Source of the DNA: Nitrosopumilus sp. Nsub
Lineage (GTDB): Archaea; Thermoproteota; Nitrososphaeria; Nitrososphaerales; Nitrosopumilaceae
Assembly (NCBI RefSeq): GCF_001541925.1
Contig: NZ_LQMW01000008.1
Span: forward strand, 62,001 to 126,000
Direction: 5' to 3'
DNA: 64,000 bases
Translations under genes and position numbers: made by a program
Notes under the pieces: generated by a model
What the model was told of the DNA's origin: nothing
Database searches by the model: none
What the model saw: only the letters and a program-made list of their open reading frames with translations
Part shown: piece after piece, positions 6,518 through 28,591 of the stretch
Numbering within the stretch: position 1 is the stretch's first letter
Layout of the letters: each line of letters opens with the position of its first letter

Positions 6518-7276
6518 CTAATCTTCTACCTCCTCACCTAAATTAAGAATTCTGCTTAATGCACTCTCAAGATTTACAATTCCATCTCCAGTTAAATTGG
6601 AAATTGGAATTAATCCTTGTTCATATTCACTTAGATTTAATCCTCGTAGAATACTTGTAGTCAATGAATATGTTTCACCATCTGTATCATTAGATATTGC
6701 ATTTTCTAATGTATTCATATTTGTTGACCATTGTAAAATATCTTTTAATTTAGTATCTATTACATCTGTTTTTGTAATTGCATTAATTGTTGGTAAATTA
6801 AGTCGTAGTCTAATTGATGTTGCAAGAAGTGCAATTGATACAAAATTTACTGGAGTAGTAATAATTGAACCATCAAAAAGAAAAATACTTGCTTTTTCAT
6901 CAGATGTAATTTGATCTATAATGAATCTTCCACTAGAACGATATGCAAATAATTCAATTTGGCCTGGAGTATCGACAATAAGATAATCGGGATTGATATT
7001 ATTCACATCATTTTGAATCTCATCAATTTTTGATGCAATCAAATCATTTGCCATTACCAATCCTCCATTTGGTCCAAGATTGTATTCTTGCATAATTGAA
7101 ACATAATCTACATAATCTCTAACATCTACATCACAATTGTAAGGCATACTTTCAACACCTGGATCTAAATTTAATATTGCAGAAAAAGCACCATTTCTTG
7201 TATAATATTCATGTAATTTTGACACAAGTGATGATTTTCCTGAACCAGCCGTTCCAGTAACAAAAATTGTTTTCAA
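6518..7276 (-). CDS. GPN-loop GTPase
   Basis: The Walker A motif GTAGSGKSS is at residues 8-16, the diagnostic Gly68-Pro69-Asn70 loop is in YNLGPNGG, and the G3 motif is VDTPGQIELF. The base-specificity motif reads TKTD. Archaeal members (the PAB0955 type) are dimeric GTPases related to eukaryotic Gpn1-3, which help assemble RNA polymerase; the archaeal role is less clear. Length 252 is typical. It is head-to-tail with thrB with no spacer. The Met1 start puts the P-loop at the expected distance. Confidence 0.9.
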   Translation of the reverse strand: MKTIFVTGTAGSGKSSLVSKLHEYYTRNGAFSAILNLDPGVESMPYNCDVDVRDYVDYVSIMQEYNLGPNGGLVMANDLIASKIDEIQNDVNNINPDYLIVDTPGQIELFAYRSSGRFIIDQITSDEKASIFLFDGSIITTPVNFVSIALLATSIRLRLNLPTINAITKTDVIDTKLKDILQWSTNMNTLENAISNDTDGETYSLTTSILRGLNLSEYEQGLIPISNLTGDGIVNLESALSRILNLGEEVED

Positions 7277-7413
7277 TCTGTGTAGATTTCTCTTCTTTGC
7301 TTATATTTCAAACTAGATTATAATCAAAAAATTTTTTGAGCCTAGAATTAGGCACTATGATTTACTGCTTTTTTCATCAACTTTCATATTTGATTCCTTA
7401 AAAAAAAATTCAA

Positions 7414-22921: not shown

Positions 22922-23575
22922 ATGCCAAACTTCGACAGTACATGGGCTCGACAAGAGACCCAAAGTGTAACTGGCAAACTACGCGATGCAGTAAAGCCTC
23001 AAGGTGCATTAAAACCACGTATTCAAACAGCAGTTAACAAACTACAAGTCCAAATATCAAAAATGGACTCAATGTTAGGTAAATTGCAAGAAAGAGATGC
23101 GCAACTCTTTCAACGAGTCGTGACTGCAATGCAGCAACATGATACTAGCACAAGTAGAGTTTTGTCTAACGAATTAGCAGAAATTCGTAAAGTTACAAAG
23201 ATGCTCGGCAATGCAAGAATGTCTTTAGAACAAGTTCAACTAAGACTGACAACTATTCATGATCTTGGTGATGCTATGGTAGCAATTGGACCAGCTATGT
23301 CTACAATGAAGGGATTGAAGTCATCGCTAGGAAGATTCATGCCAGAAGCTGATTCAGAATTGAATAGTATGACCCAGACACTTAATGGACTTATGATGGA
23401 TTCACTTGCAGGAGACTCATTCAATATGGAGTCTGATGTTTCTAACGAAGAAACCGATAAGATTCTTCAAGAAGCATCTGCAGTAGCTGAGCAACAGATA
23501 GGAGATAAATTCCCATCTGTACCATCTTCAACAGGACTTTCGTCACAAACCTCTTCTACTTCTTCCTTTGAGTAG
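22922..23575 (+). CDS. cdvB: CdvB, ESCRT-III-like division protein
   Basis: A 217-residue Snf7-type protein: a basic N-terminal region (KLRDAVKPQGALKPRIQTAV), long amphipathic helices with Met/Gln-rich heptads (RDAQLFQRVVTAMQQHDTST), and an acidic linker ahead of a C-terminal segment (NEETDKILQEASAVAE). In thaumarchaea, Cdv proteins form the midcell division band together with CdvA and the CdvC ATPase. Neither cdvA nor cdvC is in the window. The tail closely matches the partial gene at 1-148, showing at least two paralogues. Which paralogue is the main division protein cannot be told. Confidence 0.88.
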   Translation: MPNFDSTWARQETQSVTGKLRDAVKPQGALKPRIQTAVNKLQVQISKMDSMLGKLQERDAQLFQRVVTAMQQHDTSTSRVLSNELAEIRKVTKMLGNARMSLEQVQLRLTTIHDLGDAMVAIGPAMSTMKGLKSSLGRFMPEADSELNSMTQTLNGLMMDSLAGDSFNMESDVSNEETDKILQEASAVAEQQIGDKFPSVPSSTGLSSQTSSTSSFE

Positions 23576-24931: not shown

Positions 24932-25261
24932 CTAAACTACCTCGTCACCTTCACTTCCAGTCTTAATATCTACTGCACGGAGCATTTGTGAAATGAAAAT
25001 TTTACCTTCACTAGAGTTTTTCTTAATAATCTCTACTGCTTTTTCTTCTTTTGCTTCAGGTATAACTACCATTAATCGATATTTGTCTGAAAAATGAGGA
25101 ACAAAAATCTCCATTCCTTTATGTGAATGAATTTCAGCTGCAGTTTTTGCACCTCTTCCTCTAACTTTTACTACGGTTAATCCTCCTATACCGATTTGTT
25201 TTAATCCTTCACTAATTTTCATTACATCGTTATTTGCAATTATTATTTCAAGTTTTAACAT
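24932..25261 (-). CDS. glnK: P-II family nitrogen regulatory protein
   Basis: A 109-residue P-II protein (GlnB/GlnK family), a trimeric sensor of ATP/ADP and 2-oxoglutarate that docks on ammonium channels. The first strand/helix (LKLEIIIANNDVMKISEGLK) leads to the T-loop region VKVRGRGAKTAAEIHSHKG, which lacks the tyrosine uridylylated in proteobacteria. KIFISQMLRAVDIKTGSEGD matches the C-terminal signature. It is divergent from the amt gene across 114 bases, so the pair probably shares control. The symbol is given by context with amt. Confidence 0.88.
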   Translation of the reverse strand: MLKLEIIIANNDVMKISEGLKQIGIGGLTVVKVRGRGAKTAAEIHSHKGMEIFVPHFSDKYRLMVVIPEAKEEKAVEIIKKNSSEGKIFISQMLRAVDIKTGSEGDEVV

Positions 25262-25375
25262 GTTTATTTTACTTAGTTAAAGTTAATAATAATTTAGAAA
25301 TTGATTATCTTTTGATTATCACAGACAATCAAATTGGAAAACTGTTAAATGTAAAATCTTGATTTCATTATAATT

Positions 25376-26710: not shown

Positions 26711-27103
26711 ATGGGAATGGTTGAAGAAGTAACAACAAAACCAAATTATGAAAAACTTTGTTCAAAAATTTTAAACTCTGGTGAACATATTAGATTCGCT
26801 GGATTCGTAAATGATAAATCAAAAATTTTACACAGTGAACAAAAAGATAATCTTGATCCTCTTTTATCAGATCATGAAATTGCAATGTCTATTCATTATA
26901 CATTAGAGAGATGGAGAAAAGCACAAAACTTTACATTTCGTTTAGGAAAAGAAAGACTAACTTTTACTGAATACGATCATGTAACATTAGTTACAATTCC
27001 GTTTAAAGGAACTTTATTGCTAGTAAGTACCGAACCTAGAATAAATTATGATCCTATTGTTGAAAAAATTAATTCTATCTTAACTGATTGGGAGAAAATT
27101 TAG
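26711..27103 (+). CDS. Small protein with a roadblock/profilin-like look
   Basis: A 130-residue soluble protein alternating helix and strand: KLCSKILNSGEHIRFAGFVN, a charged loop, then KERLTFTEYDHVTLVTIPFK and TLLLVSTEPRINYDPIVEKI. The pattern is reminiscent of roadblock/LC7 or profilin-like folds common as small sensors in archaea, but this assignment is weak. An ATG six bases further (MVEEV) is an alternative start. It lies one base before the FNR-type reductase gene, so they are probably co-transcribed. Confidence 0.55.
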   Translation: MGMVEEVTTKPNYEKLCSKILNSGEHIRFAGFVNDKSKILHSEQKDNLDPLLSDHEIAMSIHYTLERWRKAQNFTFRLGKERLTFTEYDHVTLVTIPFKGTLLLVSTEPRINYDPIVEKINSILTDWEKI

Positions 27104-27104
27104 T

Positions 27105-27926
27105 GTGGAAAATGGGACTATTAGTTACACTCAATTATTGAGAGAAGATTTAGGCATTTTTCGTGTTACACCTGATGACAAAGTTCCTGATTTTAAGGCA
27201 GGTCAATTTTTAACTCTTGGGTTACCTTTAGATAGTAAAATTGTAAATCGAGCTTATTCTATTACATCTTCGCCTCAAAACAAAAGTTTCTTTGAATTTG
27301 TTATTAGATGGGTTAGACGTCCTCTTCCTGGAAGGCTAACTACTTTATTATTTAATGCAAAAGAAGGTGATAAAATTAGTTGGGCAAAACCTGCAGGTAA
27401 TCTAACTATTAATGATACATTGCCAAACGGTGAAAAAGACAATAGAAGAATTGTCTGCATTGGCGGTGGAACAGGATTGGCACCTTTTGTCAGTTTTGCA
27501 CAACATCTTCATGACACAAACGACAAAAGAGAGATCGTTGTCTTGCATGGTGCAAGTTACGTTGATGAGTTAAATTACAAACAACTCTTAACTGATTTAG
27601 AAAATGAAAGTATTGATAGAGGTAAGGACAAATGGAATTTCAAATATAGAGCAGCAATCAGTAGACCTGATGAATGGACTAATCGTTCATGGATTGGTCA
27701 TAAAGGTAGAATTGAACAGTTTTTGAGACCTACTGATAGTGGTAAATCTGCTCTTGAAGAATTGGTGGGGGAAAAAATAACTAAAGAAAATACAATTTTC
27801 TATGTTTGTGGTTGGCAAGGAACCATTGATGGAACTATGGATTATCTAACAAACAAAAATTTTGTTACTGAAAAAAATAAGCGTGAAGACGGAAGTTTTG
27901 AAGTTAAATTCGAATCTTATGGATAA
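27105..27926 (+). CDS. Ferredoxin/flavodoxin-NADP+ reductase-type flavoprotein
   Basis: A 273-residue FNR-superfamily protein with a GTG start just after the preceding stop. The FAD-binding domain holds RAYSITSSP, and LPGRLTTLLFNAKEGDKI follows; the NAD(P) domain holds CIGGGTGLAPFVSF, and the C-terminal motif is FYVCGWQGTIDG. Such enzymes move electrons between NADPH and ferredoxin. Ammonia oxidisers need reverse flow to make NADPH, so that is a reasonable role, but direction and partner are inference. Confidence 0.85.
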   Translation: MENGTISYTQLLREDLGIFRVTPDDKVPDFKAGQFLTLGLPLDSKIVNRAYSITSSPQNKSFFEFVIRWVRRPLPGRLTTLLFNAKEGDKISWAKPAGNLTINDTLPNGEKDNRRIVCIGGGTGLAPFVSFAQHLHDTNDKREIVVLHGASYVDELNYKQLLTDLENESIDRGKDKWNFKYRAAISRPDEWTNRSWIGHKGRIEQFLRPTDSGKSALEELVGEKITKENTIFYVCGWQGTIDGTMDYLTNKNFVTEKNKREDGSFEVKFESYG

Positions 27927-27973
27927 ATTTTACAATTATTTGATTATCATTTCTATAATTGTAAAAAATCACT

Positions 27974-28591
27974 ATGTTTAAAAACATCTATGATTTTCAT
28001 CAAATTATGAAAAAAATTGAAGCTGTAATTAATCGAAAAAATTATCCTTCAATTCGTCAAAAATTAGATGCTTTAGGTATAGATATTATTGATAAACGAA
28101 ATTTAGAAGATAGTAAATTTGTAAGTCAATCAAAAGGTTCCAGAGTAGGTGGATCTTCTCTTAGATCTACAATGCTTGCAAAAATTGAATTGGCAATGAC
28201 TGATAAACAGGCAAGAAATGTAATAGACATAATTTCCAAAAATTCGGGACTCCCAAAATCTTCTCCAAGTAAAATTTTTGTCTTTGAAATGCAGGAATCT
28301 ATTGAACTCAATTCTCTTAAAGGTGAATCTGATGTTGAAATAGATAATGAAGAGGAAAAACAATTTTCTGTAGCCCCTAAATTTGTGACTAAACGTAATA
28401 GATTAGTTCCACTTCAAAAAAGAACTTTGTACAACTTAGAACAATACTATGACAAACATAGTGATGTTTTAGCATCTGATTATAGAATTCGTTCCTTTAG
28501 TGATTTTGTTAATTATTGTATTATGAAATATTTACCTACACTTGATAAACAACTAAAGAACCAATCAATTCTTTATGAAGATGTTTTATAA
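27974..28591 (+). CDS. Divergent P-II-like domain fused to a C-terminal domain
   Basis: Residues 12-115 follow the P-II plan: KKIEAVINRKN, a helix (YPSIRQKLDALGI), a strand (DIIDKRN), a short Ser/Gly loop in the T-loop position, MLAKIELAMTDKQARNVIDI, and KIFVFEMQESIEL. The usual GRG motif is missing. An acidic linker leads to a second region (residues ~135-205; LVPLQKRTLYNLEQYYDKH and RIRSFSDFVNYCIMKYL) that looks helical and is not part of P-II. The gene is 2.7 kb from glnK and 1.3 kb past amt. ATG 28007 (residue 12) is an alternative start. It may be a second nitrogen or energy sensor. Confidence 0.6.
   Translation: MFKNIYDFHQIMKKIEAVINRKNYPSIRQKLDALGIDIIDKRNLEDSKFVSQSKGSRVGGSSLRSTMLAKIELAMTDKQARNVIDIISKNSGLPKSSPSKIFVFEMQESIELNSLKGESDVEIDNEEEKQFSVAPKFVTKRNRLVPLQKRTLYNLEQYYDKHSDVLASDYRIRSFSDFVNYCIMKYLPTLDKQLKNQSILYEDVL

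What the first reader, a model, noticed from the sequence alone, without database searches (positions are those of the whole stretch)
27974..28591. P-II-like domain fused to an unknown helical domain, close to amt and glnK
The first ~115 residues match the P-II strand/helix plan, including an ending KIFVFEMQESIEL, but lack the GRG motif and have a short Ser/Gly loop in place of the T-loop. A C-terminal region of ~70 residues, not part of P-II, follows an acidic linker and may bind DNA or a partner. This looks like a second sensor near the canonical P-II/Amt pair, possibly a distinct signalling module.
Basis: partly seen in the sequence, partly recalled or inferred. Interest (0 to 1): 0.62.

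Follow-up and report, generated by a model that had tools for sequence, protein, structure and literature searches.

The report
P-II protein fused to DNA-binding domain
In marine ammonia-oxidising archaea, a relative of the nitrogen-signalling protein P-II carries its own probable DNA-binding tail and appears to control the neighbouring ammonium transporter and GlnK genes through a repeated DNA site between them, a direct route from P-II to DNA that I found described nowhere.

Summary
The gene is real and conserved, but starts at 28007, not 27974 (194 aa). Residues 1-104 are a P-II domain (all 50 listed fold hits are P-II proteins) that has lost nearly all canonical ATP/2-oxoglutarate residues. 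A neutral acidic linker follows. The last ~65 residues are the most constrained part and are predicted, confidently, as a ribbon-helix-helix (RHH)-like domain: 19 of 20 PDB fold hits are RHH-type folds, though none is individually significant.

The strongest evidence is DNA. The glnK-amt intergenic region carries TGATWATCA palindromes, typically repeated every 11 bp, in 46 of 49 related loci (0.67 expected). In this genome the best copy of the tandem site is that region; a weaker copy lies in the fusion gene's own promoter. In two lineages where the fusion gene is unlinked, the site stays at amt/glnK; for one I predicted this beforehand and found it 240 kb from the fusion gene. Six genomes (one clade) keeping amt and glnK but lacking the fusion have no site. 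Twelve same-genus genomes lacking the fusion also lack this amt.

Best reading: a one-component P-II transcription regulator of amt1/glnK. Signal, direction of control and DNA binding itself are untested.

The parts
28007..28591 (+). P-II/RHH-like fusion gene, 194 aa plus stop (corrected start)
   Evidence: Conservation and start codons in 36 relatives; dN/dS
28007..28318 (+). P-II domain, residues 1-104; canonical ATP/2-oxoglutarate residues lost
   Evidence: Pfam, AlphaFold2, Foldseek PDB, residue mapping
28319..28387 (+). Acidic linker, residues 105-127, variable and evolving near neutrality
   Evidence: Low pLDDT; dN/dS about 0.5-1.5
28388..28588 (+). C-terminal RHH-like domain, residues 128-194, probable DNA-binding part
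   Evidence: AlphaFold2 of the domain pLDDT 86.6; 19 of 20 Foldseek hits of RHH type, each weak; strongest constraint
27977..27984 (+). TATA-like box of the fusion gene, about 30 nt before its start codon
   Evidence: Position and recurrence in relatives; inference
27930..27949 (.). Candidate operator in the fusion gene's own promoter; exact palindrome TGATTATCA at 27941-27949
25302..25331 (.). Candidate tandem operator between glnK and amt: TGATTATCT, TGATTATCA and a degenerate third unit
   Evidence: Best match of the tandem pattern in the whole genome; conserved in 46 of 49 relatives; coordinates
24932..25261 (-). glnK (P-II), probable target; itself lacks R38, Q39 and R101 equivalents
   Evidence: Pfam P-II 60.3 bits
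25376..26662 (+). amt ammonium transporter, probable target; probably the low-affinity type Amt1
   Evidence: Translation; synteny; Amt1 assignment by inference from PMC4836417 and PMC7490402

Best explanation
The gene encodes a one-component transcription regulator: a P-II-derived domain joined by a flexible acidic linker to an RHH-type DNA-binding domain. RHH dimers bind side by side to tandem TGATWATCA palindromes spaced one helical turn (11 bp) apart between the back-to-back promoters of glnK and amt1, and in part of the family also upstream of the regulator's own gene. The sites lie just upstream of both TATA regions, so I lean (about 55:45) to activation by helping TBP/TFB, rather than repression. 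The P-II part probably sets the oligomer and receives a nitrogen-related signal, either a ligand in a changed pocket or contact with GlnK. Shown by computation: the gene, the fold of part one, the constraint on both domains, the linkage, and the operator with its behaviour in trans. Inferred: RHH identity, DNA binding, oligomer, signal and direction.
For: P-II fold. C-terminal domain folds confidently and matches RHH-type folds in 19 of 20 hits; stand-alone relatives match RHH_1 above all 100 shuffled controls. glnK and amt adjacent in 28 of 28 full-flank loci. Tandem palindromes in 46 of 49 glnK-amt regions, 0.67 expected; best tandem site of the own genome is there, another in the fusion promoter, reversed control 0. 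Unlinked cases: G059 perfect sites at amt and at a P-II gene on other contigs; G021 prediction confirmed 240 kb from the fusion. No site in six g16 genomes with amt and glnK but no fusion. Fusion and this amt absent together in 12 same-genus genomes.
Against: No DNA binding was measured. Every Foldseek hit of the C-terminal domain has E above 1, and the fused-domain profile alone does not match RHH_1 better than shuffles. The no-fusion, no-operator contrast rests on one clade (g16). In most coastal Nitrosopumilus the fusion promoter has no site, so autoregulation is not general. The canonical ligand residues are lost, so what the P-II part senses is unknown.
Confidence: 0.74

Rival explanations
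1. The tandem palindromes are real operators of amt1/glnK, but another DNA-binding protein uses them, for example the widespread 131-138 aa RHH-like family of AOA; the fusion protein works by protein contact, for instance with GlnK or Amt.
For: That other family shares the domain and occurs in nearly all Nitrosopumilaceae searched. P-II proteins usually act by protein contact (general knowledge).
Against: The operator follows the fusion gene and not the other family: g16 genomes have the other family, amt1 and glnK but no operator. The C-terminal domain of the fusion is its most constrained part.
Confidence: 0.15
2. As in the best explanation, but a repressor: it blocks TBP/TFB at amt1 and glnK under low ammonia.
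For: Many RHH proteins are repressors (general knowledge). Amt1 expression falls at low ammonia in N. maritimus (PMC7490402, PMC11334935), which a repressor active at low ammonia would explain.
Against: The sites lie upstream of the TATA regions rather than over them or the start, the place more usual for archaeal activators (general knowledge). The evidence does not decide. This is a sub-case of the best explanation, so the two confidences overlap.
Confidence: 0.33
3. The C-terminal domain is a protein-interaction helical domain that only resembles RHH; linkage to amt is functional, but the repeats are unrelated promoter or DNA-bending elements.
For: No curated DNA-binding family matches it; individual fold hits are weak. 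The region is AT-rich, where palindromes are common.
Against: Dinucleotide shuffles do not reproduce the repeats; the reversed control pattern is nearly absent genome-wide; the site stays at amt/glnK when the fusion is unlinked and is absent when the fusion is absent.
Confidence: 0.1

Closest known systems
P-II signal proteins (GlnB/GlnK, Pfam PF00543)
   Same: Fold and sequence of residues 1-104; gene neighbourhood with amt.
   Different: Nearly all canonical ATP/2-oxoglutarate residues and the uridylylation tyrosine position lost; extra linker and RHH-like domain. Known P-II proteins reach DNA only through partners such as NtrB/NtrC or PipX/NtcA (general knowledge; PMC6243067 for PipX/NtcA).
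NikR (RHH plus C-terminal ferredoxin-like ACT domain)
   Same: Works alike in outline: RHH DNA-binding part joined to a ferredoxin-like regulatory part (general knowledge).
   Different: Domain order reversed and the regulatory part is P-II rather than ACT; no nickel site is claimed.
MetJ-type RHH repressors on tandem met boxes
   Same: Tandem short palindromes read by adjacent RHH dimers (general knowledge), comparable to the 11-bp repeats here.
   Different: MetJ boxes are 8 bp and the co-repressor is S-adenosylmethionine (general knowledge); no sequence relationship was found.
131-138 aa RHH-like proteins of Nitrosopumilaceae and 57-81 aa stand-alone relatives (L079, L080, L126-L128)
   Same: Homologous C-terminal domain; L080 and L079 are 34 and 47% identical over the domain.
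   Different: No P-II domain; L127/L128 carry another C-terminal part with cysteines.

Membership tests
P-II superfamily (PF00543) | Sequence match to the Pfam P-II profile above its cut-off | tested here: met
   27.6 bits for the domain alone, cut-off 25; 24.5 for the uncorrected whole frame; relatives 29.8-39.6
P-II superfamily (PF00543) | P-II ferredoxin-like fold | tested here: met
   AlphaFold2 core and Foldseek: 50 of 50 listed hits P-II, E 2.9e-6 to 4.2e-5
P-II superfamily (PF00543) | Canonical Mg-ATP/2-oxoglutarate residues (G37, R38, Q39, K58, G87, R101, R103) | tested here: not met
   All replaced in the window protein; K90 kept. So it is a P-II homologue, not a canonical GlnB/GlnK
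P-II superfamily (PF00543) | Homotrimer | not testable with these tools
   No multimer prediction offered
Ribbon-helix-helix (CopG/MetJ-type) | Match to a curated RHH profile above cut-off | tested here: not met
   No RHH profile listed for the fused domain; stand-alone relatives only E about 0.04
Ribbon-helix-helix (CopG/MetJ-type) | Fold: arm, helix A, helix B as in known RHH structures | tested here: inconclusive
   Domain pLDDT 86.6; 19 of 20 hits RHH-type but each E above 1; strand unpaired in the monomer model
Ribbon-helix-helix (CopG/MetJ-type) | Profile similarity through related sequences | tested here: inconclusive
   Stand-alone relatives beat 100 of 100 shuffles; fused domains alone do not
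Ribbon-helix-helix (CopG/MetJ-type) | Sequence-specific binding of a palindrome as a dimer | not testable with these tools
   Operator predicted; binding needs an experiment
NikR | N-terminal RHH followed by C-terminal ACT domain | tested here: not met
   Order reversed, regulatory part is P-II

The most novel reading that the evidence does not exclude
A P-II protein that is itself a transcription factor: P-II domains tether RHH dimers on an operator array of 11-bp repeats and switch amt1/glnK in ammonia-oxidising archaea, reading nitrogen state through a rebuilt ligand pocket or by forming mixed trimers with GlnK rather than through ATP/2-oxoglutarate.
Probability: 0.6. Interest if true: 0.82.

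Novelty: new variant of a known kind. Interest (0 to 1): 0.72.

Why it matters
Ammonia-oxidising archaea drive much of marine nitrification, yet how they set transcription of their ammonium transporters is not worked out in the papers I could read. This supplies a candidate regulator, its likely operator and its targets, all testable in vitro. It would also be the first P-II protein I know of with its own DNA-binding domain; the paper searches made here found no report of one, but the library lacks most subscription journals.

Tried and rejected
Pfam, NCBIfam, PHROGs and PDB sequence searches of the C-terminal domain gave nothing usable. A viral-contig scan for the C-terminal domain found no relative. 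A short T-loop was rejected by alignment; an early note of mine that the loop is two residues longer was also wrong. A merely disordered C-terminus was rejected. The first 11 codons as part of the protein were rejected. The fused-domain profile against RHH_1 by hhalign was uninformative on its own. Other tandem-like sites in the own genome with 2-3 mismatches (C7, C10, C12) showed no obvious nitrogen-transport genes and are treated as chance, several lying inside coding frames. The mismatch listing is cut, so I do not claim that every no-fusion genome lacks weak (2-mismatch) sites; several have one to three, and I did not map them.

Full report
OBSERVATION. The frame 27974-28591 (+) is open. 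Its true start is almost certainly 28007: in 36 aligned sequences conservation begins at an ATG, GTG or TTG followed by KKIEA, and TATA-like boxes lie about 30 nt upstream of that codon, suggesting a leaderless transcript. The protein then has 194 residues. Selection differs by region: against close relatives dN/dS is roughly 0.1-0.2 in the P-II part, 0.05-0.1 in the C-terminal part, and 0.5-1.5 in the linker. Both ends are functional and the linker is a spacer.

PART ONE, P-II. Pfam P-II is at its cut-off (24.5 bits whole frame, 27.6 domain) and rises to 29.8-39.6 bits in more distant family members. AlphaFold2 gives the P-II core at pLDDT about 90 in the strands and helices and lower in the loops, and all 50 listed PDB fold hits are P-II proteins, E 2.9e-6 to 4.2e-5. 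Mapping on E. coli GlnK shows replacement of the T29, G35, G37, R38, Q39, K58, G87, R101 and R103 equivalents, while K60, an acidic residue at 62, and K90 remain. The roles of these residues in other P-II proteins are general knowledge. Canonical Mg-ATP/2-oxoglutarate binding is therefore not expected. The T-loop stretch is not short: K59 here equals K60 of GlnK. It is strongly conserved (DKRNL-D-S...S-GSR-G), so it has some job.

PART TWO, THE C-TERMINAL DOMAIN. No curated family matches. Stand-alone relatives exist in other genomes of the phylum (L079, L080, L126) and as the N-terminal part of a widespread 131-138 aa protein (L127, L128). Their sequences (for example KTVTLREKVIEEIRDYY...YRVRSFSDFLNFILDQYL) read like ribbon-helix-helix. 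Aligned by hhalign with archaeal RHH_1 proteins, this group scores above all 100 column-shuffled controls in the expected register (E 6.4e-5); the fused domains alone do not. AlphaFold2 of the domain with these relatives reaches mean pLDDT 86.6, about 95-98 over residues 11-50 of the 69 modelled. Foldseek against PDB lists 20 hits, 19 of RHH type: plant TCP domains (RHH-like by general knowledge; the 7vp entries are titled only 'transcription factor and DNA complex' and are taken as TCP from memory), ParB of pCXC100 and ParD antitoxins. Each has E of 2.4 or more, so this is agreement among weak hits, not proof. Invariant K129, R130, R132 and K138 sit on the arm where RHH proteins touch DNA (position by inference).

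NEIGHBOURHOOD. In all 28 loci with at least 5 kb on both sides, the gene lies close to glnK and amt, which are divergent from each other. The linked amt is probably Amt1, the low-affinity type: P-II genes near low-affinity amt are reported for group 1.1a AOA (PMC4836417), and low-affinity amt is missing in deep-ocean AOA (PMC7490402). Matching this, 12 same-genus genomes without the fusion lack this amt too and have only a distant paralogue (about 38-46% identity).

THE OPERATOR. The glnK-amt intergenic region holds palindromes TGATWATCA at 11-bp spacing. An exact copy occurs in 46 of 49 distinct regions, against 0.67 expected from dinucleotide shuffles; distances between copies are mostly 11, 22, 33 and so on, with some at 10. 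One locus (L024) has 11 exact copies. I found the motif by reading these regions, so those counts describe it rather than test it independently. Further checks follow. (a) Own genome, 1.38 Mb: the tandem pattern with up to 3 mismatches occurs at 6 places, the best (1 mismatch) in the glnK-amt region and another (3 mismatches) in the fusion promoter; the reversed control pattern occurs nowhere. Within the 64-kb window alone the count of two such sites is not significant (13 of 100 shuffles reach it), so the weight lies on rank in the genome and on conservation. (b) G059, where the fusion stands alone on its contig: perfect sites lie on two other contigs, upstream of an amt and about 140 bp upstream of a P-II gene. 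(c) A prediction written before looking: in G021, where the fusion is near a different P-II gene and not near amt, sites should lie at amt1 and/or a P-II gene. The only site with at most one mismatch in 1.62 Mb lies exactly between amt1 and glnK, 240 kb away; the second site (2 mismatches) lies at unrelated genes, so the prediction held for the better of two. (d) Six genus-g16 genomes keep amt1 (70-75% identity) and glnK genes but lack the fusion, and have no TGATWATCA in 260 bp upstream of amt. They are one clade, hence one contrast.

MECHANISM. The palindromes sit between two back-to-back promoters, about 50 nt from each start codon and upstream of both TATA regions. The simplest model is adjacent RHH dimers on one face of the DNA, held by P-II domains through flexible linkers. 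Position slightly favours activation. Published expression (Amt1 falls at low ammonia; PMC7490402, PMC11334935) fits activation in ammonia-replete cells or repression in starved ones. In the window's clade and the pelagic relatives the fusion promoter also carries a full or weaker site, and the f2 genomes have weak ones; in other Nitrosopumilus it does not.

NOVELTY. Parts and logic are known (P-II; RHH; NikR as RHH plus a ferredoxin-like regulatory domain). The join is, to my knowledge, new, and paper searches found no P-II with a DNA-binding domain. I file it as a new variant of a known kind.

LIMITS. RHH identity rests on weak but concordant signals; DNA binding, oligomer, ligand and sign are untested; many genomes used are unnamed and metagenome-assembled; gene losses are counted per genome, not per evolutionary event.

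Noticed in passing
L127:1137-1532 (-), L128:1125-1520 (+): A 131-138 aa protein with an RHH-like N-terminus and a cysteine-containing C-terminal part, found in nearly all Nitrosopumilaceae searched and recognised by no Pfam or NCBIfam model.
   Followed up: partly
L079:3113-3322 (-): Stand-alone 70-aa relative of the C-terminal domain next to genes that look like phage portal and terminase genes, so the domain may travel with proviruses.
   Followed up: no
L024, glnK-amt intergenic region (about 7154-7361): The operator is expanded to 11 exact palindromes in tandem, a possible hypervariable promoter.
   Followed up: no
window 24932-25261 (-): The amt-linked GlnK itself lacks the R38, Q39 and R101 equivalents, so its own ATP/2-oxoglutarate binding may be unusual.
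   Followed up: no
L130:4906-5544 (-): G511 carries a strongly diverged second copy of the fusion (P-II 17.5 bits, RHH-like end kept), and its first copy has an internal stop in the aligned frame.
   Followed up: no
L081:7034-7387 (-), L083:4230-4586 (-): In f2 genomes a small P-II gene follows the fusion directly and matches its P-II part.
   Followed up: no
window 26711-27926 (+): A DUF6659 gene and a flavin/NAD oxidoreductase gene follow amt in the window's clade and the pelagic relatives; their role with amt is unknown.
   Followed up: no
G036:C1:130746-130765 and G111:C2:376175-376194: The same second near-operator site (TGATAATCATATGATTATAC) in two genomes of genus g11, a possible further target.
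   Followed up: no
window 22922-23575 (+): A 217-aa protein with a weak Snf7 match, possibly CdvB/ESCRT-III-like.
   Followed up: no
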